Source: Pseudooceanicola batsensis HTCC2597
GTDB lineage: Bacteria; Pseudomonadota; Alphaproteobacteria; Rhodobacterales; Rhodobacteraceae
Assembly (NCBI RefSeq): GCF_000152725.1
Contig: NZ_CH724131.1
Span: 1,041,856 to 1,105,855 of the forward strand
Reading direction: 5' to 3'
Length of the DNA: 64,000 nucleotides
Position 1 is the first letter of the stretch; every line of letters starts with the position of its first letter. Below the pieces are notes generated by a model that was given only the letters and a program-made list of their open reading frames with translations, ran no database searches and was not told where the DNA came from. Both the position numbers and the translations under genes were made by a program. Below are positions 16,787 through 38,951 of this stretch, in pieces.

Positions 16787-17938
16787 ATGGGACAAATCAT
16801 CGAACGCAGCCGGAAAGACGGCAGCATAACCTACACCGCGCAGGTCCGACGCAAAAAAAGCGGCAAGACCATCTTCAGCTTCGCGCAGACCTTCGATAAG
16901 AGGGCCGACGCCAAAGCATGGATGAAGCGAAAGGAGCGGGAACTCAACCAGCCCGACGGCCTTGCGATCGCCCTCAAGAAGAAGACGGCGAAGACGCTTG
17001 GCGAGGTCATCATCGCCTATATCGAGAGCCAGAATGGTCAGATCGGAAAGTCGAAGCTCCAGAACCTGAGGGCGACATGCCGGTTTGAGATCGCCAACGA
17101 GAACGTCGAGGCTCTCGTCGCATCGGACTTCGTAGCCTTCGCACAAGAATTGCTGAAGGGGACGCAGCCTGCGCCCTTGGACCCCAAGTCCATCCCTCTC
17201 GACTACTACGAACCTAAGCCCCGATTGCCCCAGACTGTCGGCGGCTACATGACGCATCTCGGCGTCGTCCTGCGTCACGGAGGACCATTGGTCGGGCTGA
17301 AGCTGCCAAAGGCAGAATTTCTCGAGGCAATGGAAACCTGCCGTCATCTCGGAATTGTGGGACCTTCAGACAAGCGTGACCGCCGACCTACCGTTGAAGA
17401 ACTCGATCAGCTTATGGCCTACTTTGTCCGCTTCAGCGATGATGACCCTCGCGCAGTTCCAATGCACATGATGGTATTGGCTGCCATCTTTCTTACTTAT
17501 CGTCAGGCGGAGCATACCCGGCTTCTTCGGTCGGACGTCGAGGCAGCACTGACCGATGAGGAGCCCACACTCACGATCCGCAACATGAAGCATCCCCGGA
17601 AGAAGCAAGGGAACGACATTACGGTTCAAATTCGCAGTGAAGGATTAGCAGTTATAAGGGCTATGGATCATGACGACAGTCGGATCTTTCCTTATCATCC
17701 TGATACTGTCAGTCGACGGTTCACTCAGGCCTGCAAGGTGCTGGGAATCGAGGACCTTCATTTTCATGACCTGCGTCATGAGGGGATCTCACGTCTCTTC
17801 GAAATGGGCCTCCAGATCCCGGAAGTAGCGGCCGTCACTGGTCACCAACACTGGCTGACGCTCGAACGCTATACCCACCTCAAAAAGAAGGGTGACAAAT
17901 TTAAGGATTGGCGGTGGTTGTGTCTGATCGGACTTTAG
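16787..17938 (+). CDS. Phage-type tyrosine recombinase (integrase)
   Basis: A 383-residue integrase. The N terminus has a short beta region and a SAM-like core-binding domain (about 60-170). The catalytic domain shows Arg in LTYRQAEHTRLL, Lys in MKHPRKKQ, HDLRHEGISR (His-x-x-Arg), GHQHW and the nucleophile in LERYTHL, all intact. ATG 16787 follows GAAGGGAAG. It is the most likely integration enzyme of the adjacent island, but no flanking attachment-site duplication was found. Confidence 0.88.
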   Translation: MGQIIERSRKDGSITYTAQVRRKKSGKTIFSFAQTFDKRADAKAWMKRKERELNQPDGLAIALKKKTAKTLGEVIIAYIESQNGQIGKSKLQNLRATCRFEIANENVEALVASDFVAFAQELLKGTQPAPLDPKSIPLDYYEPKPRLPQTVGGYMTHLGVVLRHGGPLVGLKLPKAEFLEAMETCRHLGIVGPSDKRDRRPTVEELDQLMAYFVRFSDDDPRAVPMHMMVLAAIFLTYRQAEHTRLLRSDVEAALTDEEPTLTIRNMKHPRKKQGNDITVQIRSEGLAVIRAMDHDDSRIFPYHPDTVSRRFTQACKVLGIEDLHFHDLRHEGISRLFEMGLQIPEVAAVTGHQHWLTLERYTHLKKKGDKFKDWRWLCLIGL

Positions 17939-18745: not shown

Positions 18746-19111
18746 CATGATCTGAGGGGCGGCGGCGTTGATCCAGTGAGGGAACAGCTGCATCGCAGCG
18801 CCTATCAGGAGTCCCGTCCCGGCGGCCAGGCGGTGCGTCGGAATGCGGCGAGTTCTTCAACAGAAGCGGCTCGAAGGAGACATACAGAAGCCAGCTTTGA
18901 TGCTGCGGTCTCAGCCCGCATTGCCGTCATACATTTAGCGCGCAAGGGGTAACAGGGCAGGAGGCGGCCGACCTCGAAGGCGGTTGTGGAGATCAAATCG
19001 TTGTTCCAGTAGGTAAAGACGGCCCTGCGCTGATAAGGGACTCCCAACTCCACAGACGAGAATTCTATTCCTTAGCACCCAGCAGGAACGGTAGGTCGAG
19101 CCCGAAATAAG
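18746..19111. other. Intergenic region before the large defence gene
   Basis: About 365 bases with no recognisable gene. It probably holds the promoter of the gene at 19112, but no clear -35/-10 pair stands out. The ribosome site before ATG 19112 is weak. Confidence 0.45.
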
Positions 19112-23407: not shown

Positions 23408-23619
23408 CGGGAACTCGTATCCATCCGGTGACCGGAAAAGCGCTGACCCGACAGGTCCGCGCTCAGGTCGTCAGCTTCGGCTCGATGAGCGAGCGCGTGT
23501 AACCGCCGCTCGTAATCTCCCCAGAACCGCCGTTTGAAAATTCCCCAGACGCGAGCGGCGTCGTGAATTTCCGGACCTCATTTATCCGGAAATTTGCGTC
23601 GCCGCGGACCACTGGCCTG

Positions 23620-24879
23620 ATGCCCTCAGCGCAGAGACGGGGGCGGCAGGTGAAGGGACTGAGGGAGATCGTCTTGATCCATGATCTGAAGAAACAGGGG
23701 CTGAGCATCAGCGCCATCGCGCGGAAGGTGGGCTGCGACCGCAAGACCGTCCGCAGGCATCTCGACCGAGGTCTGGAGGCTCCTGTCTACGGACCGCGGG
23801 CGCCGCGACCGCGGACCATCGAGCCGTTCGAGGCGTTCCTGCGGGAGCGTGTTCTGGCTTTCCCTGATCTCAGCGGGGCCCGGCTTCTGCGCGAGATCAA
23901 GCAGATGGGTTACGCGGGCGGCTACACCGCAGTGACCGACTTCCTGCGCGAGGTTCGGCCGCCGCGGCAGACCCGCTTCGAGTGCCGGTTCGAGACGCCG
24001 CCGGGCCGCCAGGCGCAGATGGATTTCGCCGAGTTCGCTGTCGAGTTCAGCGACGCGCCCGGCACCGTCCGGAAGGTCTGGCTGTTCAGCATGATCCTTG
24101 GTCACAGCCGCTGGCTCTGGGGCCAGTTCGTCGCCAGCCAGAACCTGCAATCGGTCCTGCGCTGCCACGTCGGTGCCTTCGAGGCGATGGGCGGGGCGCC
24201 GGAGGAGGTTCTCTATGACCGGATGAAGACCGCGGTGATCGGCGAGGACGAGGCCGGCGTGATCACCTACAACGCCGCGCTGGTGGCGCTGCTGAACCAC
24301 TACGGTGCCGTGCCGCGCGCGTGCCGCCCCTATCGGGCCAAGACCAAGGGGAAGATCGAGAGGCCGTTCCGCTACATCCGGCAGGACTTCTTCCTGGCCC
24401 GGACCTTCCGGAACCTCGAGGACCTCAACGCCCAGTTCGACAGCTGGCGCCGCGAAGTGGCCAACCCGCGCGTCCACGCCACCACGCGGCGGATCATCAA
24501 CGAGGCTTTCGTCGAGGAACGGCCGAGCCTCAAGCCGCTGCCCACCATCCCCTACAACGCAGTGCTGACGGTGGAGCGCCGCGTCAGCAAGGACGGCATG
24601 ATCTCGGTCGGCGGCAATCTCTATTCGGTGCCGGACACGGCCCGGCGGCGCACGCTGGAGATTCAGCACCATGTCACGGAGCTCAGGATCTTCGAGGATG
24701 GCCAGCTGATCGCTCGCCATCCCGTGCTCGAGGGCAAGGCCCTGCGCCGCATCGACCCTACCCACCGCAAGGCGCCGCCACCGCGACTGCCGCACCAGAT
24801 GCCCATCCAGGGGCTGCGTCGGCCGCTGGAGTTCTATGACGCCGTCGGCCGCCGCCTTGCGGCGGGCGCCCCGCAATGA
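23620..24879 (+). CDS. istA: IS21-family transposase IstA
   Basis: About 420 residues. An N-terminal helix-turn-helix (REIVLIHDLKKQGLSISAIA, RKVGCDRKTVRRHL) is followed by a DDE integrase core: Asp in RQAQMDFAEF, Asp in VLYDRMKTAV and Glu in TKGKIERPFRYIR. The C-terminal beta domain (SKDGMISVGGNLYSVPD) is normal for IstA. ATG 23620 and GTG 23650 are both possible starts. The stop overlaps the istB start by four bases. Confidence 0.93.
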   Translation: MPSAQRRGRQVKGLREIVLIHDLKKQGLSISAIARKVGCDRKTVRRHLDRGLEAPVYGPRAPRPRTIEPFEAFLRERVLAFPDLSGARLLREIKQMGYAGGYTAVTDFLREVRPPRQTRFECRFETPPGRQAQMDFAEFAVEFSDAPGTVRKVWLFSMILGHSRWLWGQFVASQNLQSVLRCHVGAFEAMGGAPEEVLYDRMKTAVIGEDEAGVITYNAALVALLNHYGAVPRACRPYRAKTKGKIERPFRYIRQDFFLARTFRNLEDLNAQFDSWRREVANPRVHATTRRIINEAFVEERPSLKPLPTIPYNAVLTVERRVSKDGMISVGGNLYSVPDTARRRTLEIQHHVTELRIFEDGQLIARHPVLEGKALRRIDPTHRKAPPPRLPHQMPIQGLRRPLEFYDAVGRRLAAGAPQ

Positions 24880-25718
24880 CCGAGCTCCTCGATCGCATTC
24901 GCGGCGCGCTGGTCGGCCTCCGGATGCCCCGAGCGCTGGAAGCTCTGGATCACACCCTCCAGCAGCTGGAGAAGGGCGAGATCACCGCCATCGAGGCCAT
25001 CGACGGTCTGCTCAGCGAAGAGTTCATCACGCGGGAGAGCCGCCGCATCGATATGGCCCTGCGCACCGCCAAGCTGATGCCGGTCAAGACGCTGGAAAGC
25101 TTCGAGTTCAGCTTTCAGCCTTCGCTCGACCGAGACCGGATTGCGGCCCTGGCCCAACTCGACTTCATCCGGCGGGCAGAGGTGGTCCATTTCCTCGGCC
25201 CTCCCGGAACCGGCAAGAGCCATCTCGCCACGGCTCTCGGCGTCGCGGCAGTGAAGGCGGGCCGCAGCGTCTACCGCGCCACCCTCGCCGAGCTGATCGA
25301 GGGGCTGGCCCAAGCCGAACGAGAGGGCCGCCTACCGGAGAAGATCCGGTTCTATGCCCGAGCGTCTCTGCTGATCGTGGACGAGATCGGCTATCTACCC
25401 ATCACCCGCGGCGGCGCCAACCTCTTCTTCCAGCTGGTGAACGCCCGCTACGAGAAGGGCGCCATGATCCTGACCTCCAACCGCGGCTTCGCTGAATGGG
25501 GTGAGGTCTTTGGCGATCCTGTCGTCGCCACCGCGCTGCTCGACCGGCTCCTGCACCACGCTGTCGTCATCCAGATCGAGGGCGCCAGCTATCGCCTGCG
25601 CGCGCACGCGGACCTGATCCCCGAGCACGTCCGAGCCAACGCGCCCATCTCGCCGCCTCCACCGCCCAGGCGCAGGGGGCGACCGCTGAAACCCAAGAAT
25701 GGAGCTGCAAATCACTGA
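24876..25718 (+). CDS. istB: IS21 helper ATPase IstB
   Basis: A 280-residue AAA+ ATPase of the DnaA/DnaC type. Walker A is FLGPPGTGKSHLATAL (about 106-121), Walker B is LLIVDEIGYLPI, and sensor 1 is ILTSNRGFAEW. It directs target capture by IstA. Length is slightly greater than usual because of a Pro/Arg-rich tail (PPPPRRRGRPLKPK). Confidence 0.93.
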   Translation: MTELLDRIRGALVGLRMPRALEALDHTLQQLEKGEITAIEAIDGLLSEEFITRESRRIDMALRTAKLMPVKTLESFEFSFQPSLDRDRIAALAQLDFIRRAEVVHFLGPPGTGKSHLATALGVAAVKAGRSVYRATLAELIEGLAQAEREGRLPEKIRFYARASLLIVDEIGYLPITRGGANLFFQLVNARYEKGAMILTSNRGFAEWGEVFGDPVVATALLDRLLHHAVVIQIEGASYRLRAHADLIPEHVRANAPISPPPPPRRRGRPLKPKNGAANH

Positions 25719-26170
25719 CTGCCGGCCGATCGCCGGCCCCGCCGAAGTGGGGAATTTTACTTCGGCACTTCTGGGGAAATTTACCTCGGCGTTGACAAGC
25801 GCGTCGATGTTCCCGGCTGGTATCCGAAAGACGACAGCGACTCGATCCATTCCGGAGCGGACCTCGCGGTAAGAGAAGAGACCCTCGCAAGGCTGCGCAA
25901 GGACTACGGAAACCATGTCCGAGGAATCCGCAAGGCGTTGCGCCTCACGCAGAGCGAGGCTGGAAACATCGTCGGTGGCGGGCCCCGCGCCTTCCAGAAA
26001 TACGAGAAGGGCGTCATGCCGCCCAGCGATGCCGCCGTTGGTCTACTGGAGATCCTGAAGGACGACCCGGGCAAGATCGAGATACTCAAGCGGCTTCGAG
26101 AATCTCACTCGCCGGTGCCGGTTCAGGGGTCCGGATCATCTGGTCGGAGAGACGGCGCGACAGCGTAGGT

Positions 26171-26186
26171 GTTGGCAGCTGCCAAC
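26171..26186. repeat. Palindrome copy 1 (GTTGGCAGCTGCCAAC)
   Basis: A perfect 16-bp palindrome starting three bases after the mqsA stop at 26168 and ending 36 bases before the small gene at 26223. First of five related copies up to 32754. Confidence 0.9.
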
Positions 26187-26222
26187 TGTAGGACGCGAGC
26201 GCCCCAAGCCAGGAGCATGACG

Positions 26223-26540
26223 ATGTCGGTCAGGGAAATCGCGGAGAAGCTCGGACCGGTGCACGAGGTCAAGAGGCACACCTCCGGTTCGCAGGAGGTC
26301 GTCGTCCTGCGGCCATCCAGGGCTGGAGAGCCGATCAAGGCCATCGTGGCAGCCCTGGCACTCGCTCGATGCGGCACCTCCCTTCCCGCGGCGAAGCGAG
26401 CCATAGAGCGCGTCGTCGACGCAGGTGACGCGACAGTCATCCTGCCGACAGTCTTCGCGCGCCATGATCTCGCCCGGGCGCTCGCATCTACCGGGATCGA
26501 CGTGGCGTTCAGTTCCGAAGTTGGCAGCTGCCAACTTTGA
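26223..26540 (+). CDS. Unrecognised 105-residue protein ending inside a palindrome
   Basis: ATG 26223 (MSVREIAEKLGPVHEVKRH) is chosen over ATG 26217, which is too close to AGGAGC. The product has a beta-like segment (SQEVVVLRPSRAGEPI) and two helices (KAIVAALALARCG, LPAAKRAIERVVDAG), then TVILPTVFARHDLARALAS. I do not recognise the family; a small regulator or antitoxin is possible. Its last codons, VGSCQL-stop, are supplied by palindrome copy 2, so the present C terminus was created by whatever placed that repeat. It stands alone between mqsA and the CBASS operon. Confidence 0.55.
   Translation: MSVREIAEKLGPVHEVKRHTSGSQEVVVLRPSRAGEPIKAIVAALALARCGTSLPAAKRAIERVVDAGDATVILPTVFARHDLARALASTGIDVAFSSEVGSCQL
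26518..26537. repeat. Palindrome copy 2 (20 bp)
   Basis: AAGTTGGCAGCTGCCAACTT is a perfect 20-bp palindrome overlapping the 3' end of the gene at 26223-26540. It shares the 16-bp core with copies 1 and 4. Confidence 0.9.
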
Positions 26541-26632
26541 CAAGGCACCTCAGCGACGTCCGGTGCCGCAGCTATGTCAGTGGATCGGCCAAAAGCTGTC
26601 CTACGGGCTGCCTTGGAACAGGTGGCGAACAA

Positions 26633-26650
26633 AACACCATCAGTGGTGTT
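26633..26650. promoter_or_regulatory. Inverted repeat upstream of the CBASS operon
   Basis: AACACCA-TCAG-TGGTGTT is a perfect 7-bp dyad in the 490-base gap before the CD-NTase gene. It may be an operator or a weak terminator; it has no T tract. Confidence 0.45.
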
Positions 26651-26709
26651 GCCCTGAGGGTAGTAAGCTCATATATTGTGCAGGTGAGCAAGTTGATTGA
26701 GGGAGGCAG

Positions 26710-27027
26710 TTGAACGAGCTCGAAGGGAAGGAGTTCGTCATGCCCCTTGGTAATTTTTATCAACGCAGACGCCCGGACGGCGTCACCCCTCACTTCGATA
26801 TTCGGTCGTGTGAGACCCCCTCTTTTAGGTCGGCGCTGCCGGGCGCCCAGGTGCATCGGCATGATCGTCTGATTTTCGGAGCGTGGAAAGCGGACCCATT
26901 TCCAGCATCAGTGCACCAAGTCGGCCTTGTTGGTTCTTCGTCTGGCCTCACGCACCGGGGAACCAAGATCTCAGCCCACCTCGCACGCTGCCATGCGCCG
27001 AACACTAACGTGAAAGGTCTCCAGTAG
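26710..27027 (+). CDS. Possible 105-residue leader protein of the CBASS operon
   Basis: TTG 26710 follows GGGAGGCAG, a good ribosome site, and the frame ends at TAG 27027, one base before the CD-NTase ATG. The product has no recognised domain and an unremarkable composition. It could be a real leader that couples translation into the operon, or chance. There is no better gene in this interval. Confidence 0.3.
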   Translation: MNELEGKEFVMPLGNFYQRRRPDGVTPHFDIRSCETPSFRSALPGAQVHRHDRLIFGAWKADPFPASVHQVGLVGSSSGLTHRGTKISAHLARCHAPNTNVKGLQ

Positions 27028-27028
27028 A

Positions 27029-28048
27029 ATGACGGTCCCCAACGCCCGCTTCACCGAACTCTTGCAGGACATCGAGCCAAGCTCGACGACCAAGTCTCAT
27101 GCCTCGACAGCCCACATCAAGATGCGGGAGCACCTGCGCACGCAGTCAGACTTCAAGGACCTATACACTGGCAGCTTCCTGTCAGGGAGTTCCGCTCGCG
27201 ACACGGCGCTGCGGCCCAGGACGTCCGCAGGCCAAGTCGAGCGGCCCGACATCGACATCATCGTGGTCACGGACTTTTCCACCGACGATGACCCCGAGTG
27301 GGTTCTCAAGAAGGTCTGCCGGGCCATCGAAGACAAAGGAATCGGATATCCCGTCGAGCGCATGAATCGTCGCTCGGTCCGTGTGAATACCTGGCGGGCT
27401 GAAATGGACATCGTCCCTGTGGTCGAGGATGGGACGGAAGGCTACTGGATCGCGGACCGCGAGAGCGGGACATGGCAGTTTACGAACCCGCCGGTCCATA
27501 AGACGTGGAGCGCCGAACAGAATGCTATCTTCAACGGGCGCTTCACGCCCATGGTGAAGCTCTTTAAGTGGTGGCGCCGGATTAACCCGACGAGCGGCAA
27601 GCGGCCGAAGGGCTTCGTTTTGGAGCGACTGGTTTCCCTCCATGCGCCAGTCGGAGAGGCGCATTACGGGGAGGCGTTCACTCAGCTCCTCGAAAATATC
27701 CAGAGCGCTTACGAGATCAATGCGGCACTCGGAATGAAACCCTTCATCTCGGACCCTGCCGTTCCTGGCAACGACATCCTCTCGAGGGTGACCGTCGCCC
27801 AGTGGCAAGAGTTCATCCGGAAGGTCGCGACCTACGCCGCCATCGCGCGCAAGGCGCAGGATGCTGACGATCTCGACGAAGCCACGCGTCAGTGGCGCCG
27901 TGTCCTCGGAGACCGCTTTAAGACCACCCAGAAGACCAAGGCCTCTGCGTCCGCTTTCGGCACTTTTGCAACAGCTACTCCGGCGCCCGGCTATTCATTC
28001 CCGGACGCCATGGCGGCGCCGACCACAAAGCCGCGCGGGTTTGCATGA
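27029..28048 (+). CDS. cdnA: CD-NTase (cGAS/DncV-like cyclic oligonucleotide synthase)
   Basis: A 339-residue nucleotidyltransferase that makes the CBASS alarm nucleotide. The active site is visible: Gly48-Ser49 in TGSFLSGSSARDT, Asp74/Asp76 in RPDIDIIVV and the third Asp127 in AEMDIVPV. A helical C-terminal half follows (MVKLFKWWRR onward) and ends in a flexible Ala/Thr/Pro tail (TTKPRGFA), the part Cap2 conjugates in studied systems. It overlaps cap2 by ATGA. Nucleotide product and clade cannot be set from sequence by eye. Confidence 0.92.
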   Translation: MTVPNARFTELLQDIEPSSTTKSHASTAHIKMREHLRTQSDFKDLYTGSFLSGSSARDTALRPRTSAGQVERPDIDIIVVTDFSTDDDPEWVLKKVCRAIEDKGIGYPVERMNRRSVRVNTWRAEMDIVPVVEDGTEGYWIADRESGTWQFTNPPVHKTWSAEQNAIFNGRFTPMVKLFKWWRRINPTSGKRPKGFVLERLVSLHAPVGEAHYGEAFTQLLENIQSAYEINAALGMKPFISDPAVPGNDILSRVTVAQWQEFIRKVATYAAIARKAQDADDLDEATRQWRRVLGDRFKTTQKTKASASAFGTFATATPAPGYSFPDAMAAPTTKPRGFA

Positions 28049-29718
28049 AGTTCTGGTGGCTGGTGGACAGCGCGCGTCTCGCCGCTGAAAGGCGCTCTAT
28101 CGAGCAGGCGGCCGCCGGCGAGTGGTTCCGTTTCGCTCGCTGGACGCTGCACCACGGCCTGGTCTGCGTCGAGGGCGAAATCCTCGCCCACGACAACACC
28201 TATCCCGTCCGACTGATCTACCCGGACCAATTTCCTTTGGTTCCGGCATGGGTTGAACCAGCAGAAAAAGCTCGGTGGAGCAGTCACCAGTATAGCGGCG
28301 GTAGCCTGTGCCTCGAACTTAGGCCGGACAACTGGATTCCGACCGCGACAGGGGCTGACGTTCTGGAAAGCGCGTTCAACCTTCTTCACACGGAAGATCC
28401 CCTCGGGGAGGGAGGCGCCACCGCACCTTCCGATCACCGGGTCGGCGAAGTTCAGACCTACGGCGACTTGCATCTGCCTGCGCTGATCGGAGCAGGGTGT
28501 CTCGATCGACTGAAAAAAGGGGAAAGGAACGATGTTCGCGCATTGCGGTGGCACTACGTCGACGACACCCTCCCCCTGCATATTCATGACGCTGAAGATC
28601 TGGCAGCGCAGAACCGCCCGCCTGACCCAAGCCAAGAAGCCGGTCTCAATACCGTCCCCCTGTATATCTCCGCCAAGGAGGCTCCAGACGCGGTCAACGA
28701 TCGCACCGCTCTCCTTGAGGCGAGCGAATGGGAGCCTGAAGAGGCTCTGGCCATTGAACTGACTCACGGAGCCGAAGTTCTGTTCCTCGGAGGTCCAACG
28801 CCCAGCATCTTTAGTCTGATCGCGGAGAAGACATATCGAAGGGAGCTCTACGTCCTGCCGGACGAAGGCGGCCTTCGGGCGGCAGCCAAGTCTCCACGAG
28901 ACGACAAATCCGTGTCGATAGTGGGCGCAGGATCTGTAGGTTCAAAGATTGCTGAGTCACTGGTGCGCTCCGGTGTCCGTCGCCTCCAAATCGCCGATGG
29001 TGACGTCATGCTTCCCGGGAACTTGGAGCGGCATGTTCTCGACTGGAGGGATGTCGGAGGACGGAAGGTTCATGCGCTGAAGAAGCGGCTGCTGAACATA
29101 AGTCCAGGGGCCAGCATCAGCATTACCCCCAGCAACTTGAACTGGCAGCGGTCAGCTGTCGCCCACGCCTGGCAAGTCGAGGACATTGCCGAGGGAAAGG
29201 TCATCGTCGACGCCACCGGCGACCCGGCCACATCCTTGCTTCTTGGTGCCATCGCGCACGCGAACAAGCGCCCCTTCGTATCCGTTGAGGTGTTCGAAGG
29301 CGGCATCGGCGGTCTCGTCGCGGCAGTCATCCCGGAACGTGACCCCCCTTTCGCCGAAGGTCGGGCCACCTTCCTAAGCTGGTGTCATGAGCAGGACCAG
29401 CCGCCCCCCGCCGCCGGGCCGCGGAGCTACGAGGCTCTGACCCCGGATGGGATTCCGATGGCTGCCGACGACGCCGCAGTTTCCACCATCGCCGGGCACG
29501 CCGCGCGCGTCATCCTGGACGTTCTCGATGGGAATCCGCCGCGACCGGAGGCGGCGTGGCTCCTTCTCGGTCTGCAAGAATCCTGGCTGTTTGAGGGGCA
29601 TGGTCACACCATCCGTTTGAGCGTCGGTTTTCAAGCCGAGACCCCAGTCAAACAGGATGATGAGGAAGCGAAGAAATTTGCACTCGAGCTCCTGAACGGG
29701 GCCCGCAGTGCGGATTAG
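28045..29718 (+). CDS. cap2: Cap2: E2-E1 fusion conjugating enzyme of type II CBASS
   Basis: A 557-residue protein. The N-terminal E2-like part includes SGGSLCLELRPDNWIP with candidate catalytic Cys89. The C-terminal E1/ThiF part has the adenylation loop VSIVGAGSVGSKIAESLVRSG (near 290-310), Asp in IVDATGDPATS, and Cys447 in LSWCHEQD, the likely E1 cysteine. In characterised systems Cap2 links the CD-NTase C terminus to targets and primes signalling. It overlaps the CD-NTase by four bases and cap3 by eleven. Confidence 0.9.
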   Translation: MKFWWLVDSARLAAERRSIEQAAAGEWFRFARWTLHHGLVCVEGEILAHDNTYPVRLIYPDQFPLVPAWVEPAEKARWSSHQYSGGSLCLELRPDNWIPTATGADVLESAFNLLHTEDPLGEGGATAPSDHRVGEVQTYGDLHLPALIGAGCLDRLKKGERNDVRALRWHYVDDTLPLHIHDAEDLAAQNRPPDPSQEAGLNTVPLYISAKEAPDAVNDRTALLEASEWEPEEALAIELTHGAEVLFLGGPTPSIFSLIAEKTYRRELYVLPDEGGLRAAAKSPRDDKSVSIVGAGSVGSKIAESLVRSGVRRLQIADGDVMLPGNLERHVLDWRDVGGRKVHALKKRLLNISPGASISITPSNLNWQRSAVAHAWQVEDIAEGKVIVDATGDPATSLLLGAIAHANKRPFVSVEVFEGGIGGLVAAVIPERDPPFAEGRATFLSWCHEQDQPPPAAGPRSYEALTPDGIPMAADDAAVSTIAGHAARVILDVLDGNPPRPEAAWLLLGLQESWLFEGHGHTIRLSVGFQAETPVKQDDEEAKKFALELLNGARSAD

Positions 29719-30172
29719 GATTGCGCCCGATCAAGCCAAGAAGCTCCGTATGGCGTTGAACGAGGGAGGACACCGAGAGATCGGCGGACAACTCTTTGGC
29801 GAGCAACTGGCTCCGTCCCAATTCCTTGTGACCAACCTTACGGTCCAAGCTCGTCGGGGGTCCTATACGCGCTTCATTGTCGATCTCTTTCAGGCGGCGC
29901 GTGATGCCATGCGCTTCTTTGACAGCACGCAGCACGACTACACCCGCCACAACTACATTGGCGAGTGGCATAGCCATCCGAGTTTCAAGGTTCGTCCAAG
30001 CGGAACTGACCTGACAACCATGCGCGAGCTTGTTCGAGATCCGGGTTTCAAGGGCACCTTCGCTGTCCTCATGATCGTCCGACTGGATGCGGATTGCATT
30101 GCAGCGGCCGCCTGGAATTTCGACCCCCTGGGCCGGGAAGGCGTTGCTCAGCTGGAGATCGAGAATGACTGA
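29708..30172 (+). CDS. cap3: Cap3: JAB/JAMM deconjugating protease of CBASS
   Basis: A 154-residue MPN-fold metalloprotease that reverses Cap2 conjugation. The JAMM zinc motif is intact: Glu in REIGGQLFGE near residue 22, then His88-x-His90 and Asp101 in GEWHSHPSFKVRPSGTD. The start is GTG 29708, inside the end of cap2. The stop lies beyond the start of the effector, so the operon is fully coupled. Confidence 0.9.
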   Translation: MRIRIAPDQAKKLRMALNEGGHREIGGQLFGEQLAPSQFLVTNLTVQARRGSYTRFIVDLFQAARDAMRFFDSTQHDYTRHNYIGEWHSHPSFKVRPSGTDLTTMRELVRDPGFKGTFAVLMIVRLDADCIAAAAWNFDPLGREGVAQLEIEND

Positions 30173-31586
30173 GGAGACACTGGGTCACGCCCTCACTGAC
30201 AAGAAGGGGATGGGCGGCGTCACTGCTCAAGATGGGTTCGACTACCAGATGTGGGACGGGCTGAGGCGGGTCCCTGGCTGGCTTGCCAATCCTGTCTTCG
30301 AACACCTGCTTTTCGAGGGGCTCGAAGACTACGAGGCTCGCTTTTTCGCCCCACACGCCCCGGAGCATCACGTTCTCGAGCGCTATCAGGCGAAAGGGAA
30401 TGATCTTGGACCGGCCGACATTCGAGAGATCCTCGAGGGTTTCCATGCCTTCGATGAGCGCTTTCCTCAGCGGGCGCGCCTGCACGCACTGGTGACGCCA
30501 CGCCTCCCCCCGACTCTACAATGGCTGGGAAAACACACCGATCGGGTTCGGCGCGCCCGCCCCTTCTATTCGCCGTTCTCGGACATCGCCGCGGTGAGCG
30601 ACGCTGAGTTGAACCGTCGTATCTCCGGGCACTTCGATGAACCGCTGGCTTCCTTCATCGCCAATGCAGTCGAGTTCAGCGAGCAAAACATCCCAGACTT
30701 GGACGGAGCCACACGGGCATTCGACACTGCCTTGGGCGAGGCGTTTCCTGCGCTCGACCCCCGATCCAGCCAGGTCAAAGCAGCCTTCAATGCGCTGATC
30801 GAGCTCGCAAGAGGCAATCGCGGTCGACCCTTACCCCGGAACGCGCTCATCGATGCCATCGAAGCAGGGCTGGGTGAGCGGCTACCTCAGCCTGCCTGCT
30901 TTCCTTTACTCATGCGCTCCGATCGGAACGAGTCCAACGAGCTCGCGCTCGAGATTGACGGAAGTCCGTTCTCCGGAGGTTCGGCCAGATTCCCCCAGAC
31001 AGGACAGTGGCAAGATGATCTGGTATCGCCGCTCCGGCAGGCGGCGGTTTGGCTCCGTCGGAATGATCAGTCTCGGATCGCCGTCCAAGGGTCCTACCGG
31101 CTGACGAGCGCGATGGTGCTCGGACAATCGCTACGTGCCGCCCACGGTTTCGAGATAGAGATACCCACGCGCGAAGGCGTCTGGAGGACCGATGATCACG
31201 GCAGTGCACAGGATGCGTCGGCTGACTGGAAGATTGTGATGCCCAGCACCTTGGCAAACGGTGAGCTCACAGTTTGCATCGGTGTGATAAGAGACCCTTC
31301 TGCCGCGATCTCTCAGACAGCCGGCACCTCGCACGACGCGATGCTGGTGGCCCATCTCCCGAAGGCGATCACCTCGGGAAGGGAGGCACAGAACGGCGTG
31401 GCTCTGATAAAGGACAGCGTGACGAAGACGGTCACTTCACTAAATCCGCAAAGAGTGCGGCTCTATATCGCTGGACCTGCCGCCTTCGCCGTCGCCCTCG
31501 GGCATCGGTGGAACGCAATGCCACCGACCCAACTCCACGAGTATCTTGCCGATGAGCAGCGCTATATTCCCACTGCGAGCATCTGA
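30165..31586 (+). CDS. cap4: Cap4-like CBASS effector: DUF4297-type nuclease plus SAVED domain
   Basis: A 473-residue effector. The N-terminal part begins with GMGGVTAQDGFDYQMWDGL and has Glu in LEDYEARFF and Gln75-Ala-Lys77 in RYQAKGND, the signature of DUF4297 PD-(D/E)xK DNases. From about 290 the C-terminal half resembles SAVED, the cyclic-oligonucleotide sensor (IAVQGSYRLTSAMVLG, ELTVCIGVIRD, VRLYIAGPAAFAVALGHRWN). Binding of the CD-NTase product should oligomerise the protein and trigger DNA degradation. ATG 30165 overlaps the end of cap3. Confidence 0.88.
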   Translation: MTEETLGHALTDKKGMGGVTAQDGFDYQMWDGLRRVPGWLANPVFEHLLFEGLEDYEARFFAPHAPEHHVLERYQAKGNDLGPADIREILEGFHAFDERFPQRARLHALVTPRLPPTLQWLGKHTDRVRRARPFYSPFSDIAAVSDAELNRRISGHFDEPLASFIANAVEFSEQNIPDLDGATRAFDTALGEAFPALDPRSSQVKAAFNALIELARGNRGRPLPRNALIDAIEAGLGERLPQPACFPLLMRSDRNESNELALEIDGSPFSGGSARFPQTGQWQDDLVSPLRQAAVWLRRNDQSRIAVQGSYRLTSAMVLGQSLRAAHGFEIEIPTREGVWRTDDHGSAQDASADWKIVMPSTLANGELTVCIGVIRDPSAAISQTAGTSHDAMLVAHLPKAITSGREAQNGVALIKDSVTKTVTSLNPQRVRLYIAGPAAFAVALGHRWNAMPPTQLHEYLADEQRYIPTASI

Positions 31587-31607
31587 GCCGTCGGCTCATG
31601 TTTGGAG

Positions 31608-31621
31608 TTGGCATCTGCCAA
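31608..31621. repeat. Palindrome copy 3 (TTGGCA-TC-TGCCAA)
   Basis: The same 6-bp arms as the other copies with TC instead of GC in the centre. It lies 22 bases after the CBASS operon stop and 34 bases before kptA. Confidence 0.85.
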
Positions 31622-31655
31622 ACACGATGCACTGCCCAGATGAGGCGACCGTTCG

Positions 31656-32195
31656 ATGAGCAGTGACAGCAAGTTCCTTTCGAGGGTTCTCAGACATGAG
31701 CCCGAACTGATCGCGATCCAGCTCGACCCCCAGGGCTGGGTATCGGTCGACGATCTCCTACGTCGGTTGAAGAAAGTCGGCCACGGCATGAGTAGAGAGC
31801 AACTCCGCGAGATCGTGGAGACGAACGACAAGCGTCGCTTCACCTTGAGCGCTGACGGCCGGCGAATTCGGGCGGCACAGGGACACTCCGTCGACGTCGA
31901 CCTCGGCCTCACGCCGCTTGTCCCGCCGGAATTTCTGTATCACGGCACCGCGGCCCAGAACCTCGACGCGATCTTCGAGACGGGTCTCAATCCCGGCCGT
32001 AGGCGGCAGGTTCATCTCTCTCCCGAACCCGAGACAGCGAACCGCGTCGGCCAGCGGCATGGCAAGCCGACAGTCCTGCGGGTCGAGGCGAGCAAGATGC
32101 ACGCCGACGGCTTCGTCTTCACCTGCTCCGACAACGGTGTCTGGCTTACCGATAGCGTTCCTGCCGCCTATCTCGGCTTCGGCGTCATGCTCTGA
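31656..32195 (+). CDS. kptA: RNA 2'-phosphotransferase (KptA/Tpt1 family), copy 1
   Basis: A 179-residue protein that removes a 2'-phosphate from RNA splice or repair junctions using NAD. The family signatures are present: KFLSRVLRHEPELIAI (about 6-21), the winged-helix part (DLLRRLKKVGHGMSREQL), NDKRRFTLS, IRAAQGHSVDVD, LYHGTAAQNLDAI and VHLSPEPETANRVGQRHGKP. The catalytic Arg-His-Arg-Arg set appears conserved. It is framed by palindrome copies 3 and 4. A second copy is at 40499-41044. Confidence 0.92.
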   Translation: MSSDSKFLSRVLRHEPELIAIQLDPQGWVSVDDLLRRLKKVGHGMSREQLREIVETNDKRRFTLSADGRRIRAAQGHSVDVDLGLTPLVPPEFLYHGTAAQNLDAIFETGLNPGRRRQVHLSPEPETANRVGQRHGKPTVLRVEASKMHADGFVFTCSDNGVWLTDSVPAAYLGFGVML

Positions 32196-32198
32196 CCC

Positions 32199-32218
32199 CT
32201 GTTGGCAGCTGCCAACAG
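32199..32218. repeat. Palindrome copy 4 (20 bp)
   Basis: CTGTTGGCAGCTGCCAACAG is a perfect 20-bp palindrome, four bases after the kptA stop and between kptA and the convergent ynfA-like gene. Confidence 0.9.
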
Positions 32219-32236
32219 CGCGGTCAGGGCAGAGCG

Positions 32237-32563
32237 TCAGGCGGCCCGGGGTGCCCAGAGAATGATCGCGGCACCAGCAAGGCAGACAGCTGCCCCGACG
32301 AGATCCCACTGGTCCGGGCGATGCCCCTCCACGAGCCAGAGCCAGAAAAGCGACGCGGCGATGTAGACCCCGCCGTAGATGGCGTAAGCGCGGCCGGCCT
32401 GGTCAGCCGGACTGAGTGTCAGAAGCCAGGCGAAGGCAGCCAGAGACGCAATCCCCGGCACGAGCCAGAGCGAGGAGTGCCCCATTCGGAACCAGGCCCA
32501 GAAGGCAAAGCATCCGGCGATCTCCGCCAGCGCGGCCGCGCAGTATGTCGCGATGGTCATCAT
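32237..32563 (-). CDS. YnfA/UPF0060 family small membrane protein, copy 1
   Basis: A 108-residue protein with four hydrophobic helices and the family signatures [32 protein letters not shown] and [19 protein letters not shown]. YnfA proteins belong to the small multidrug resistance superfamily. ATG 32563 is chosen by comparison with the second copy at 50985-51311. It is convergent with kptA. Confidence 0.88.
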
Positions 32564-32876
32564 GTCCTCAGTGGATGCGATCGCACCGAAGATGCGGCAG
32601 TTCAAGATCCGCTGCGGTTCCGTAGGCCCGCCGGACATGTTGATGCGCGCGATGTTGGCCGCCACGACCTGATGCTCGGCGAGGCGGTCGGCGCCATCTC
32701 TGTGCCGGACCTCGTGGCACACGTGCTGGTCGAGCCCAACGATGGCAGCTGCCAACGTCTCGCTGCCTGCCGCTTTAGGGTGTCGGCATCTGAATCTTGG
32801 CACCGGATCTTGATCGGCCCGGCTTCGACCCATGTATATCGGCTGGCCCTCGACCGAGAAACCCTTCTTACTGAAC
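32564..32876. other. Intergenic stretch, possible decayed coding sequence
   Basis: About 310 bases with no convincing gene. One plus-strand frame ([27 protein letters not shown]) looks protein-like and runs into palindrome copy 5, but it has no start or family match. Confidence 0.35.
32743..32754. repeat. Palindrome copy 5 (TGGCAGCTGCCA core)
   Basis: ATGGCAGCTGCCAA keeps the 12-bp core and differs from copies 1, 2 and 4 at one outer base. Confidence 0.75.
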
Positions 32877-32910
32877 GGGAAACGGCCGCCCGAATGGGCA
32901 GCCGTTTCCC
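32877..32910. terminator. Strong hairpin downstream of the KfrA-like gene
   Basis: GGGAAACGGCCGCCC and GGGCAGCCGTTTCCC can pair around GAAT with one mismatch. It lies 17 bases past the minus-strand stop at 32927 and could end that transcript. Confidence 0.65.
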
Positions 32911-32926
32911 TTCGTTCGTCTTCGCC

Positions 32927-33601
32927 TTACGCTGCCGGTTCTGGTGACGAGGTTGCCATTATATCCGAGACGACCGCACGAATGTCGGCCTTGTTGGCCG
33001 GATTTCGCAATTCAGCGAGCAGACGGTCAAAGCCGGCTGGTTCACGGCCAAGCCGCTCGATCTCTGCTCGTGCCACCCGTAGCTCTTCCTGAAGATCAGC
33101 CAATTGCTGCGCAACAGCGTCACGCTCCTGCTCGATCTTGTGGCGAGCAGTCTTCTCTTCGGCGAGATCACCTTCGAGTTCGGTGACGCGATGTTGCGCG
33201 ATGCGCTTGTCGGCGCGCAGTTCTTCGCACGCCTTGTCCGCGATGCCTTGAGAAGTCACGTGCTGGCGGGCCACAACCAGCAGCAATTCGCGTCCGGCAG
33301 CCGCGACAGCGGCGTCGACGGAAGATGCGATGCCACCAGGCAAAGCCTTCAGGAGCGCACGGCTCTCGGCCTCCGCGATCTCGGCATGGACAGCGTCAAC
33401 CAGGGCCTCGAGGGCCTCCTTGCGGATCGTGCCGTTCACGCCGTGTTCCGTGCACAGCTTCTCCTTGACGTAGGAAGCGTCGAGCTTGGCCGCGGGTGTG
33501 CCACCGGCGAGGCCGTCGGCGATGATCTGGTGCACGAGGTTGGGATCGTAACTGTGCGGGCGGCCGCCAGTGTTTGTCTTGTTTTTTGCGGTCTTTGTCA
33601 T
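32927..33601 (-). CDS. KfrA-like plasmid DNA-binding protein with coiled coil
   Basis: A 224-residue protein with an N-terminal helix-turn-helix region (DPNLVHQIIADGLAGGTPAAK, YVKEKLCTEHGVNGTIRKEAL) and a long alpha-helical coiled coil (about 130-195: RVTELEGDLAEEKTARHKIE, VAQQLADLQEELRVARAEIERL). This is the KfrA architecture, known on broad-host-range plasmids as an autorepressor helping plasmid stability. Two 13-bp palindromes lie just upstream of its start. It supports a plasmid or plasmid-derived history for the region. Confidence 0.75.
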   Translation of the reverse strand: MTKTAKNKTNTGGRPHSYDPNLVHQIIADGLAGGTPAAKLDASYVKEKLCTEHGVNGTIRKEALEALVDAVHAEIAEAESRALLKALPGGIASSVDAAVAAAGRELLLVVARQHVTSQGIADKACEELRADKRIAQHRVTELEGDLAEEKTARHKIEQERDAVAQQLADLQEELRVARAEIERLGREPAGFDRLLAELRNPANKADIRAVVSDIMATSSPEPAA

Positions 33602-35489: not shown

Positions 35490-37595
35490 ATGACCCTCGT
35501 CGAAACCTTGAAGAACTACCTCGAAGCCAGCGGGGAATCGAAACGATCGCTGTCAGTCCGCTCCGGTCTCGGCGAGAGTGCAGTGAAAGACATTCTTCGC
35601 ATCCCCGGCCTGAATCCTCGAGCTACGACGCTCGCGGCCCTATCGCGCACGACGGGAACTGATCTCTTCGCGTGCTTGGAGCACCCGCCCATCTACTACT
35701 CAGACCTTCTTGCCCGCTTCGACGCGGAGGGCGAGAAACGCAAGGCGGCCAGGGTGCGGTGGCTGACGCGCGTGACTGGTTGGGTTCCTGAAACAACTAT
35801 CGTGTGTCGTCGCGAGGTCGTCGAATTCCTCCGAACCCATCATTCTGCGGAGTTCAATCTGACGAAAGGCAGCTACGCGACCTATTCGAGCGAGGCGATC
35901 GACATCGTCAGCCAGTTGGGAGTGCGCAACCGGAAGCGTGGTTCTCGTGATCTTACCGGGGAGCATGCGGACATCCTGATGGCGATCTCAGACGATGAGA
36001 GCGGTCTCCGAGAATGGCAGGTAGGTGTGGCTCGTCCTTTCCTGGTGTTCCTGCATGACCGGAAGATGCAGATCCGGGATGTCACGACGGATACGCTCGC
36101 AGCCTACTATTCAGAGCGGCTCGAGGTGTCGTCGAAGACAAAGGAAAAGTGCCGGCAACATGTCATCGAAGTCGCCAAGTTTCTGAAGGATGCCAGCGGG
36201 AACGCGGCCTTGCAGACTTACGGCTTTCGACCCGTGGAGCACCCCTTTGGCAAATACTCTGGTAAATATGGCGTTGCGGACGAAGTCGTCGCCGACCTGA
36301 TGAAGGAATTTGATCGGGATGTGGCGCCGTGGGCCATGGGTGAGATGTCCCGGACAGGTCAGTCGCTTGCTGCGTTCATCGAGGACTTGGACAAACGCGA
36401 AGGATCGGTTTCCGAACGGAAGGCGCTGTTGCAGAAGCGGCGTGCGGAGAAAGCCGCGCGTCCTGGTCAGAAACCGGTCGAGGAGACACGGACGAATGAC
36501 GATGTATTGGCAGCGAACGGATTCTTAACCGACAAGGAGAAGTGGTCGACGAAGACGCTGGAAAAACGTCGGGGCTACATCGTGTCGCTGGCGAAAGCGA
36601 CCGTCGCGACCGTCGACATCGTGCCGGAATCCATGGAGGAACTGCTTGATCCGGACTTCCTGGAGACCGCCGTTGATGGCATCAGGGAGGCCAACGTGGG
36701 TGAATTTTCAAGCGGGTATCTGGGGGGCGTTCTGAAGTGCGCGCGAAAGATCGCCAAGGGTTTTCAGCGCCGGTCAAAAGATGACCTGGTGCGGATCGAC
36801 AATTTGGTCAGAATACATGACCGCAAGCGCAGGGGCATCGCGCCGCGCAACAAGGCAAAGTTACGCGAATTCGACGAACAGCGAATCCAACGCACCATCG
36901 ATCTGGGCGACGAGATCATCGCCGACGTGAACGCCGAGATCGATCGTCGGCGGGTGGCCCACCGCAAGAAGCACGGGGTGCTGCCCGCCCGCGTCGATGT
37001 CATCGATGCCGAACTGGGCAGGAAGGTCATGGCGGCGCTCGCGCATGAGATCCTGCTCCGGAACGCGCCTCGCAGCGACAACCTGATCAATGCCCGAATG
37101 GACTGGATCAGCTGGCAAGGCGAGCAGGCGCGCATCACCGTTCCCGCGGTGCACGTAAAAATGCGCGGCCCGGATGACGAAGACCTCACTCTGTTCCTCG
37201 ATGGGAGGCAAAGCAAGCTCCTGAGGTCCTACCTCGAGACGGTGAGGGCAAAGTGCCTCGTCAGCGGCGATGATCGGAATCCCTACCTTTTCCCCGCACA
37301 AGTCCGGAAAGAGGAGGTCGGGCAGCCTTACAAGACCATTCTGAAGCGCGTCACCCGCGTGCTCAACGAGAAGGTTGGCACCAGGATCAATCCGCATCTC
37401 TATCGACATCTCATCGGGTGGATCTGGCTGAAACAGAGCATCGACAACTTGCCCAAGGTCAAGCGGATGCTGGGCCATACGCGCCTCCAGACGACGATAG
37501 ACTACTATGCCGAGCTCGATCCAAGCCTCGTCTTCGACGCCTGGAACGAACATCTCAACAGCAAGTCCACTTCCGGTAAGGTCAGGGCCGCATAG
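35490..37595 (+). CDS. Large tyrosine recombinase with N-terminal helix-turn-helix
   Basis: A 701-residue recombinase. Residues 1-65 look like a Cro/C1-type helix-turn-helix (TLKNYLEASGESKRSLSVRS, GLGESAVKDILRIPGLNPRATTLAAL). The C-terminal catalytic domain shows Arg in APRSDNLINARM, Lys in VHVKMRGPDDEDL, His-x-x-Arg in NPHLYRHLIGW, GHTRLQTT and the Tyr nucleophile in IDYYAELD (about 671-672). It is about twice the usual phage integrase length because of the added N-terminal and middle regions. It is followed after 36 bases by a second recombinase. Confidence 0.85.
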   Translation: MTLVETLKNYLEASGESKRSLSVRSGLGESAVKDILRIPGLNPRATTLAALSRTTGTDLFACLEHPPIYYSDLLARFDAEGEKRKAARVRWLTRVTGWVPETTIVCRREVVEFLRTHHSAEFNLTKGSYATYSSEAIDIVSQLGVRNRKRGSRDLTGEHADILMAISDDESGLREWQVGVARPFLVFLHDRKMQIRDVTTDTLAAYYSERLEVSSKTKEKCRQHVIEVAKFLKDASGNAALQTYGFRPVEHPFGKYSGKYGVADEVVADLMKEFDRDVAPWAMGEMSRTGQSLAAFIEDLDKREGSVSERKALLQKRRAEKAARPGQKPVEETRTNDDVLAANGFLTDKEKWSTKTLEKRRGYIVSLAKATVATVDIVPESMEELLDPDFLETAVDGIREANVGEFSSGYLGGVLKCARKIAKGFQRRSKDDLVRIDNLVRIHDRKRRGIAPRNKAKLREFDEQRIQRTIDLGDEIIADVNAEIDRRRVAHRKKHGVLPARVDVIDAELGRKVMAALAHEILLRNAPRSDNLINARMDWISWQGEQARITVPAVHVKMRGPDDEDLTLFLDGRQSKLLRSYLETVRAKCLVSGDDRNPYLFPAQVRKEEVGQPYKTILKRVTRVLNEKVGTRINPHLYRHLIGWIWLKQSIDNLPKVKRMLGHTRLQTTIDYYAELDPSLVFDAWNEHLNSKSTSGKVRAA

Positions 37596-37631
37596 GCGCC
37601 CTGACCGACGCGGCTCGACAGGAGAATAAGC

Positions 37632-38951
37632 ATGAATCCCCATATCGACATGCTCGCCGACTTCCGGTCAGCCGGGCCCGCGCAAGCCGTTCCCGGCATG
37701 AGCGAGCTGTCCGAGCATCTGCACGGGCGGATGGCGGCGGTCGGTGAGGTCGCTTTCCAGGAGTTCGCATACCTGCAACATGTCGCCGCCGCCACGTGGG
37801 GACCGGAGCGGACAAGCCACTTCGCGGTTGTCTTGCGGCAAGCTCGTGTCGCGGCGAAAGCTCCCAAGGTCAGCCGATGGAAAATGGCCAGCACCGCGAT
37901 CGAGCGCCTACCTCCGGAATGGCAGAGCTCGCTACGGGAAATTCTCGACCGATCCGAGGCAGGTAAGGTCACGTCCGGTCTCCCCATTCTGAGCTCAGAC
38001 TATCTCGGGGCGGTCACGACCGCGCTTGGTCGCTATGTCGACTATGCGCGCAGTTGCGGCGCCGGCTTGATCCCATCGGGGTCGGACCTGCATTGCTACG
38101 CGCTATGGCTGACCAACCCGACCAACACCGACCACGGGGTCTCAGTCAGAACGGCGGCGGACTATCTCTCTCGGATCAAGGCGGGGCTGGCAATCATTGC
38201 GCCCTGGGCCGACTCGTCCGCGAGGGAGTTCGTGTGCCGCTACTGGCGCGAAAAAGGCCGCGCGGGCGGGTCTCCGACGAAGACCGGAGACCAACTTGTG
38301 GGCGCCGTCGCTATCTACGACCTGGGGTTTCGGCAGATCGAGGAAGCGCAGAGCAAATCCATCCGTGGCGTCCGAGCGGCGACGATCTTCCGCAATGGGT
38401 TGATCTTGGTCTTGGGCACCGCCTTGCCGCAGCGGGCACGCGCAATCTCGGCGCTCCAGGCGGGAACAACTCTTTGGTCCGAGCAGCCTGATCGCCTGCA
38501 TGTCCGTATCCCTGCGCGGATGTTGAAGAGGCGTGAGGACCAAAAGGCCGGCGACCCCTTCGACATCGTGTGGCACAACGCACGCCTCGTGGCGGCGCTG
38601 GAGGAATACTACCGCTGCTACCGGCCGCTTTTCGATGACGGCTCTTGTCTCTTCCCTTCCGTTCATGCGCCGGGCCAGTCGATCAGTGAAAAGCGGATTG
38701 GGCGATTGTCGGCGGAGATCACCGAGAAGAAGCTTGGAGTTCGTATCCCGATCCATCGACTGCGGGACAATGTCGGCACCGATGCCGCGGAAAACCTGGT
38801 CGGAGGCCGTCTCGCGACGAAGGCGCTGCTCGACCACGCCGACATCGGCACCGGCGACCACTACGACCATTCGACCGCAGCAAAAGCGGCTGCCGAGTTC
38901 GGGCACTATATCGACAGTTGCCGCACCACGCCGACGGATCTCGCCCTATGA
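37632..38951 (+). CDS. Second tyrosine recombinase of the pair
   Basis: A 439-residue protein. The catalytic part is recognisable from Arg in ALPQRARAISAL, HRLRDNVGTDA (His-x-x-Arg) and LLDHADIGTGDHYDHS, which supplies His and the probable nucleophile Tyr. The basic segment IPARMLKRREDQK may supply the active-site Lys. It lies 36 bases after the larger recombinase, as in multi-recombinase elements, and a bidirectional terminator follows. Confidence 0.8.
   Translation: MNPHIDMLADFRSAGPAQAVPGMSELSEHLHGRMAAVGEVAFQEFAYLQHVAAATWGPERTSHFAVVLRQARVAAKAPKVSRWKMASTAIERLPPEWQSSLREILDRSEAGKVTSGLPILSSDYLGAVTTALGRYVDYARSCGAGLIPSGSDLHCYALWLTNPTNTDHGVSVRTAADYLSRIKAGLAIIAPWADSSAREFVCRYWREKGRAGGSPTKTGDQLVGAVAIYDLGFRQIEEAQSKSIRGVRAATIFRNGLILVLGTALPQRARAISALQAGTTLWSEQPDRLHVRIPARMLKRREDQKAGDPFDIVWHNARLVAALEEYYRCYRPLFDDGSCLFPSVHAPGQSISEKRIGRLSAEITEKKLGVRIPIHRLRDNVGTDAAENLVGGRLATKALLDHADIGTGDHYDHSTAAKAAAEFGHYIDSCRTTPTDLAL

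What the first reader, a model, noticed from the sequence alone, without database searches (positions are those of the whole stretch)
26171..32754. A 14-20 bp palindrome recurs five times at module boundaries in the defence island
TTGGCA-NN-TGCCAA occurs at 26171, 26518, 31608, 32199 and 32743, and I saw no full copy elsewhere in the window. Positions are not random: three bases after the mqsA stop, overlapping the end of the 105-residue gene, 22 bases after the CBASS operon, four bases after kptA. Each module therefore ends in a copy. Perfect loop-less palindromes make poor terminators. Two readings: recombination or insertion boundaries that let defence cassettes be swapped, or operators of one island-wide regulator. 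The first would be a new kind of cassette junction.
Basis: partly seen in the sequence, partly recalled or inferred. Interest (0 to 1): 0.82.

Follow-up and report, generated by a model that had tools for sequence, protein, structure and literature searches.

The report
Orphan plasmid centromeres bounding defence cassettes
A 16-letter mirror-image DNA word in this bacterium's defence island matches the segregation site (centromere) of a plasmid-type partition system whose protein genes are missing here, and in related bacteria defence genes have been gained, lost or swapped next to these words, so it looks like a centromere site that also marks where gene modules are exchanged.

Summary
The palindrome is real: copies at 26171, 26520 and 32201 are GTTGGCAGCTGCCAAC; 32741 has one change, 31607 two. 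The 14-mer core occurs four times in the 4.44-Mb genome, all here.

It is very probably a repABC-type parS centromere: it fits the published consensus GTTNNCNGCNGNNAAC, and relatives carry it in and around a RepB-type parB gene. Of 394 family genomes, 3 have that ParB and all 3 have the site, which 7 have. The window shows no parB and only a parA scrap at 18962-19013: orphan sites.

The cassette reading also gains support. Window site-kptA-site recurs in Roseivivax marinus with unrelated neighbours. Marivita lacus has one site where the window has site-CBASS-site. With palindromes masked, homology breaks abut 13 of 40 sites against 13 of 380 ordinary gene ends.

Weaknesses: some breaks lie 12-35 bp from the palindrome, these islands turn over at ordinary gene ends too, and how exchange happens is unproven. 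No conserved sequence beyond 16 bp argues against a classical recombinase site.

The parts
26171..26186 (.). parS-like palindrome 1, GTTGGCAGCTGCCAAC, 2 bp after the mqsA stop
   Evidence: 0 mismatches to consensus GTTNNCNGCNGNNAAC
26520..26535 (.). parS-like palindrome 2, exact, overlapping the 3' end of the 105-residue gene
   Evidence: left flank homologous to Marivita lacus L136 up to the site, other side replaced
31607..31622 (.). parS-like palindrome 3, GTTGGCATCTGCCAAA (2 changes), 20 bp after the CBASS operon and 33 bp before kptA
32201..32216 (.). parS-like palindrome 4, exact, 5 bp after the kptA stop
32741..32756 (.). parS-like palindrome 5, GATGGCAGCTGCCAAC (1 change), beyond ynfA
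18962..19013 (+). parA C-terminal remnant (RRPTSKAVVEIKSLFQ, stop); no other part of parA and no parB was detected
   Evidence: tblastn 69.6% over 23 aa, E 3.4e-4; translation; same order (truncated parA, then TPR gene) in L262 and L263
19112..23116 (+). 1334-aa protein with PIN-TPR-GreABC and Mrr-like matches; its homologues in G047 and L086/L087 are followed by a palindrome
   Evidence: Pfam
25800..26168 (+). MqsA-type antitoxin, C-terminal part, next to an IS21-like element (the IS named by eye)
   Evidence: MqsA_antitoxin E 9e-12; inverted repeats 23493-23547 / 25748-25802
26223..26540 (+). 105-residue gene between palindromes 1 and 2, no Pfam match
   Evidence: homologue 55% in Marivita lacus next to the site, 43% in G047
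27029..31586 (+). CBASS operon (CD-NTase, E2-E1 ThiF, JAB, SAVED endonuclease effector), cargo between palindromes 2 and 3
   Evidence: Pfam, PADLOC
31656..32195 (+). kptA (RNA 2'-phosphotransferase), cargo between palindromes 3 and 4
   Evidence: Pfam; site-kptA-site shared with Roseivivax marinus, 80%
16787..17938 (+). tyrosine recombinase left of the sites; 31% to the integrase beside the truncated parA in G396
   Evidence: Phage_integrase E 9.2e-13; tblastn
35490..38951 (+). two consecutive genes right of the sites: a 701-aa tyrosine recombinase and a 439-aa weak match to the same family
   Evidence: E 4e-9; E 0.018, below the cut-off

Best explanation
The five palindromes are centromere (parS) sites of a repABC-type ParA-ParB system that once belonged to a family of elements of Rhodobacteraceae carrying defence and other cargo. 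In members with parB, ParB (ParB_N plus RepB domains) would bind the sites, two of which lie inside parB itself and the others outside it over up to 21 kb. In the window parB and nearly all of parA are gone, so the sites are orphans that have begun to decay. Many modules carry a copy just after their stop codon and all copies share the same 16 bp, so the sites have served as exchange points: modules such as kptA and CBASS were gained, lost or swapped next to copies. Shown by comparison: fit to the parS consensus, link with parB, parA/parB decay, excess of homology breaks at sites. Inferred: ParB binding, and that exchange runs by recombination between copies, most simply short-homology or ParB-clustered recombination rather than a dedicated recombinase.
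For: parS identity: fits GTTNNCNGCNGNNAAC. In one search, 10 of 13 loci with another RepB-type ParB hit had a repeated 16-bp palindrome of their own nearby. Seven close homologues of the L034 ParB (74-100%) each hold two exact sites 579 bp apart inside parB, but these loci were found by the motif. In a sample not chosen by motif, ParB (E below 1e-50; 100, 90 and 52% identity) is in 3 of 394 family genomes, all 3 among the 7 of 394 with the site (hypergeometric 3.5e-6). Orphan state: no ParB hit in the window, parA scrap; parA truncated or frameshifted without this parB in G394, G396/G397, L262/L263, L264. Boundaries: site-kptA-site; CBASS present/absent; 23 of 49 homologous flank pairs have a replaced partner; 13 of 40 sites against 13 of 380 gene ends, palindromes masked; Fisher 3e-8. 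Decay: sites outside parB 15 of 15 exact where parB is present, 12 of 18 where not (p 0.021).
Against: These islands turn over at ordinary gene ends too: 35 of 113 control pairs replaced against 21 of 37 at sites, odds ratio 2.9. Pairs share ancestry, so p-values are optimistic. With the palindrome left out, the kptA homology between window and R. marinus starts 12-17 bp inside the sites, and several other families start 11-37 bp away; the exact ends are partly due to the shared palindromes. In G395/G396 similarity runs about 25 bp past the site. Of the 7 masked breaks, 2 have similar genes elsewhere within 3 kb. A second parS class also collects alignment ends at its sites (17 of 1050, null 0.08). 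Three ParB loci (L061, interrupted by a run of N; L063; L071) showed no repeated palindrome. G047 has a RepB-like gene on the same contig as its sites, so a partner there is possible. The codon test within parB (10 of 10 site codons invariant against 122 of 217) is circular, because the sequences were chosen by exact sites; I give it no weight. No binding or recombination was measured.
Confidence: 0.6

Rival explanations
1. The palindrome is primarily a site for a dedicated recombinase (a dif-module or integron-like cassette system), and its match to parS is secondary.
For: Exchange junctions at or near sites; in 17 of 40 copies an ORF stop lies -1 to 6 bp from the site edge, as attC and dif modules do (recalled); tyrosine recombinases lie in several islands.
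Against: No conservation beyond 16 bp except a stop codon trace, where tyrosine recombinases need about 28 bp (recalled); no recombinase cluster was common to the 14 partial loci compared. Serine recombinases were not searched.
Confidence: 0.15
2. Stolen centromeres, as in SGI1: the island keeps parS copies to use the ParAB of a resident or incoming plasmid for its own stability.
For: SGI1 carries two parS copies that hijack IncC ParABS (PMC10954446, passages). Some copies stay exact while flanks drift to 68-80% identity. The own genome's contig C5 has a RepB-type ParB beside a parS differing by one base per half.
Against: Sites without the cognate parB show more changes; truncated parA scraps point to loss; the chromosomal location makes partition needless unless the island excises, which was not tested.
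Confidence: 0.1
3. Pure relics: the sites are leftover centromeres, and module turnover at them only reflects ordinary turnover at gene ends.
For: 31% of ordinary gene-end pairs in these islands are also replaced; sites lie at gene ends (17 of 40 against 15.1% of random positions); some breaks lie 12-35 bp off the site.
Against: Break density at sites is about ten-fold that at gene ends with palindromes masked; the CBASS segment has a copy at each end where Marivita lacus has one.
Confidence: 0.12
4. Operators of one island-wide transcriptional regulator.
For: Copy 3 lies 33 bp upstream of kptA and copy 1 about 36 bp upstream of the 105-residue gene.
Against: Copies favour gene 3' ends; one sigma-70-like promoter in the region, 1.1 expected, though that consensus suits this group poorly. 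I searched for no regulator apart from ParB.
Confidence: 0.02
5. Transcription terminators.
For: Palindromes close after stop codons.
Against: Loop-less with no T-run; none of the 5 terminator-like hits in 25900-33000 is at a site.
Confidence: 0.01

Closest known systems
parS centromeres of repABC replicons (e.g. pAMI4, PMC9040568, passages read)
   Same: 16-bp palindrome matching GTTNNCNGCNGNNAAC; several copies, some in ORFs or tens of kb from repABC; partner ParB has ParB_N and RepB domains
   Different: Window copies lack parA/parB, sit on a 3.4-Mb contig, and lie where defence modules are exchanged
SGI1 parS copies that hijack IncC ParABS (PMC10954446, passages read)
   Same: Partition sites on an island without its own parAB
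   Different: SGI1 has two copies and a known helper plasmid; here five, a parA scrap remains, and no close ParB is in the genome (best 35%)
Acinetobacter dif (pdif) modules (PMC13141974, PMC6449649; search listing and abstract starts only)
   Same: Small gene modules flanked by short repeated sites and shuffled at them
   Different: dif modules use 28-bp XerC/XerD sites (recalled); here 16 bp, symmetric, no conserved arms
Integron gene cassettes (attC; recalled)
   Same: One palindromic site close after the ORF's stop
   Different: attC architecture not seen; copies also lie inside parB; intI was not searched

Membership tests
repABC-type parS | Match to consensus GTTNNCNGCNGNNAAC | tested here: met
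   3 of 5 window copies match all fixed positions, one off by 1, one off by 2; consensus from PMC9040568
repABC-type parS | Copies at or near a parAB operon with a RepB-type ParB | tested here: inconclusive
   Met in 7 relatives found by the motif and in 3 of 3 ParB genomes found without it; not met in the window, where only a parA scrap was found
repABC-type parS | Bound by cognate ParB and needed for partition | not testable with these tools
   no binding or stability assay
Xer dif module | 28-bp site with conserved recombinase arms (recalled) | tested here: not met
   at most 0.18 bit at any flanking position in 78 flanks
Xer dif module | Modules bounded by sites and exchanged at them | tested here: inconclusive
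   Excess of breaks at sites and examples, but several breaks lie 12-35 bp off the site
Integron cassette | intI integrase and structured attC | not tested
   only a general Phage_integrase search was run
Transcription operator set | Sites in promoter regions with a shared regulator | tested here: inconclusive
   placement favours gene ends; promoter scan at chance; regulators not searched

The most novel reading that the evidence does not exclude
A plasmid centromere has become a cassette junction: dispersed parS copies, kept by partition in complete elements, act as exchange points that let defence modules be inserted, deleted and re-ordered, and outlive the partition genes in chromosomal islands, possibly because ParB clustering brings the sites together and raises recombination between them.
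Probability: 0.4. Interest if true: 0.87.

Novelty: new variant of a known kind. Interest (0 to 1): 0.72.

Why it matters
How defence islands gain and swap modules without obvious mobile genes is an open question. If centromere sites double as module junctions, a 16-bp word marks cassette ends, islands become readable, and new defence genes can be sought between copies. It would also give partition systems an evolutionary role beyond segregation. The claim is directly testable with a binding assay and a two-site reporter.

Tried and rejected
Terminator and operator readings were looked at and found no support. A recombinase common to the loci was sought and not found in the partial loci compared; one search lists Phage_integrase matches in 12 of 12 genomes but its listing is cut, and serine recombinases were not searched. 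I first took a junction in the NP5 contig (L074, part of G401) for a circular-permutation junction; the contig end is a repeat, so I claim nothing from it. Alignment-end counts without masking (17 of 518 ends, random null 0.004, stop-adjacent null 0.06) overstate precision because the shared 16-mer anchors alignments; I rely on masked counts and matched gene ends. The second parS class gave a similar unmasked excess (17 of 1050), which I suspect reflects divergence around repB/repC but did not check. The codon test in parB is circular and only 4 of 7 homologues passed its filter. The window's CBASS DNA gave any match in 12 of 394 family genomes, in full only in the own genome, so no second CBASS junction could be compared. 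3775 plasmid records match the ParB, none at 60% or more. Rows dropped before counts: parB-internal site pairs; G397 (near-copy of G396), L087 (near-copy of L086) and loci on contigs already in the set; the single parB sites of G404 and G405; one search's decay count uses 7 contigs with parB and 5 without, leaving out single-site loci. In one search continuing pairs count from both sides (18 counts, 9 pairs) and the L086 and L170 partner flanks were short (913 and 566 bp); one search used longer stretches there.
Full report
Observation. The window holds four exact copies of TTGGCANNTGCCAA and one with a single mismatch; none is expected by chance. The 14-mer occurs nowhere else in the 4.44-Mb genome held. 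The 16-mers are GTTGGCAGCTGCCAAC (26171, 26520, 32201), GTTGGCATCTGCCAAA (31607) and GATGGCAGCTGCCAAC (32741).

What it is. The word fits the repABC centromere consensus GTTNNCNGCNGNNAAC quoted in PMC9040568 (passages read). In relatives copies lie in and around a parB whose product has ParB_N and RepB domains. Seven close homologues of this ParB (74-100% identity) each carry two exact copies inside parB, 579 bp apart, and 6 of the 7 carry more outside parB; two homologues at 52-53% carry one. All nine came in through the motif. In a sample not chosen by motif, 3 of 394 family genomes have this ParB (E below 1e-50; 100, 90, 52%), all 3 among the 7 of 394 that have the site; the own genome is one of the seven (p 3.5e-6). 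Of 13 loci with other RepB-type ParB hits, 10 hold a repeated palindrome of the same length of their own, such as GTTGACAGCTGTCAAC on the own genome's contig C5; L061, L063 and L071 showed none.

Orphan state. The window has no ParB hit and the own genome's nearest is 35%. A scrap encoding the last residues of ParA lies at 18962-19013, just upstream of the 1334-aa gene. In two other genomes (L262, L263) the same gene is preceded by a parA lacking its first 73 residues, with no parB in the 20 kb. G394 and G396/G397 hold parA open frames without the N-terminal part, L264 one broken over several frames, and G395 aligns with the G396 parA stretch at 87%; none of their genomes has an L034-type ParB. 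Sites outside parB are exact in 15 of 15 cases in 7 contigs with parB and in 12 of 18 in 5 contigs without it (p 0.021). Yet some orphan copies stay exact while adjacent DNA has drifted to 68-80%, so loss may be recent or another use persists.

Cassette boundaries. Window 31607-32216 (site, kptA, site) aligns to Roseivivax marinus at 80% over 610 bp, the alignment running from one palindrome's outer edge to the other's; without the palindromes the homology starts 12-17 bp inside them, and the outer sides show no similarity in 3 kb. In Marivita lacus the 105-residue gene's homologue, one site and a partly deleted kptA are contiguous, where the window has gene, site, CBASS operon, site, kptA. 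On the core side of parA, four genomes share 75-96% identity on one side of the site, starting 13-26 bp from it, and have four unrelated neighbours on the other; G403 and G396 share 94% over 3000 bp from the first base beside the site, the other side replaced. In R. marinus a 33-residue mqsA fragment stops at the base next to a palindrome.

Controls. Of 49 homologous flank pairs, 23 have a replaced partner, 18 continue (9 pairs counted from both sides) and 8 show similarity elsewhere in 3 kb. With stricter matching, 21 of 37 pairs are replaced at sites against 35 of 113 at ordinary stop codons in the same contigs (p 0.006); continuing pairs can count twice at sites but once in the control, which works against my reading. 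With palindromes masked, 7 homology ends abut sites, touching 13 of 40 sites, against 7 ends within 36 bp after stops, touching 13 of 380; 5 of the 7 have a replaced partner. Pairs share ancestry, so p-values are optimistic. A second parS class also gathers alignment ends (17 of 1050), a warning that divergence can mimic breaks.

Mechanism. Flanks show no conservation beyond the 16 bp apart from a trace of the stop codon at positions 2-4; 17 of 40 copies lie by an ORF stop, against 15.1% of 6000 random positions. This fits a ParB site and short shared homology better than a recombinase site with arms. Tyrosine recombinases occur in several islands, but no cluster was common to the 14 partial loci; serine recombinases were not searched. 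Homology that starts 12-35 bp off the palindrome is not what a strict crossover at the site predicts.

Comparison and novelty. parS copies far from repABC and within ORFs are known (PMC9040568), islands with stolen parS copies are known (SGI1, PMC10954446, passages), and modules shuffled at short sites are known as dif modules (listing). Searches listed no paper that joins these; I saw only the top rows, and the library lacks most subscription papers. On checking I rescaled the odds to sum to one, lowered the best explanation from 0.68 to 0.6 and interest from 0.74 to 0.72, because the kptA ends are less exact once palindromes are left out and the codon test proved circular.

Noticed in passing
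own genome G000:C2 50130, 1562107, 1753988, 1964017, 2979156, 3166415 (L243-L248): Six single, widely spaced copies of GTTGACAGCTGTCAAC, the palindrome beside the ParB of contig C5; simple arithmetic expects far less than one, and they are unexplained.
   Followed up: partly
window 31656-32195 and 40340-41044: Two different kptA genes within 9 kb; only the first is bounded by palindromes.
   Followed up: no
window 22998-26168: An mqsRA-like pair seems split by an IS21-type insertion; MqsA by Pfam, MqsR and the IS by eye only.
   Followed up: no
L083/L171 and L074/L133: Records titled Enemella evansiae and Rickettsiales MAG carry this element; the first matches a contig of G002, which is classed in the window's family, so titles or bins look wrong.
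   Followed up: no
window 19112-23116: 1334-aa protein with PIN-TPR-GreABC and Mrr-like matches, no PADLOC match, next to palindromes in relatives: a candidate defence gene.
   Followed up: partly
window 32927-33601: Minus-strand coiled-coil protein that looks like a plasmid KfrA (recalled; Pfam gives only coiled-coil matches below cut-off).
   Followed up: no
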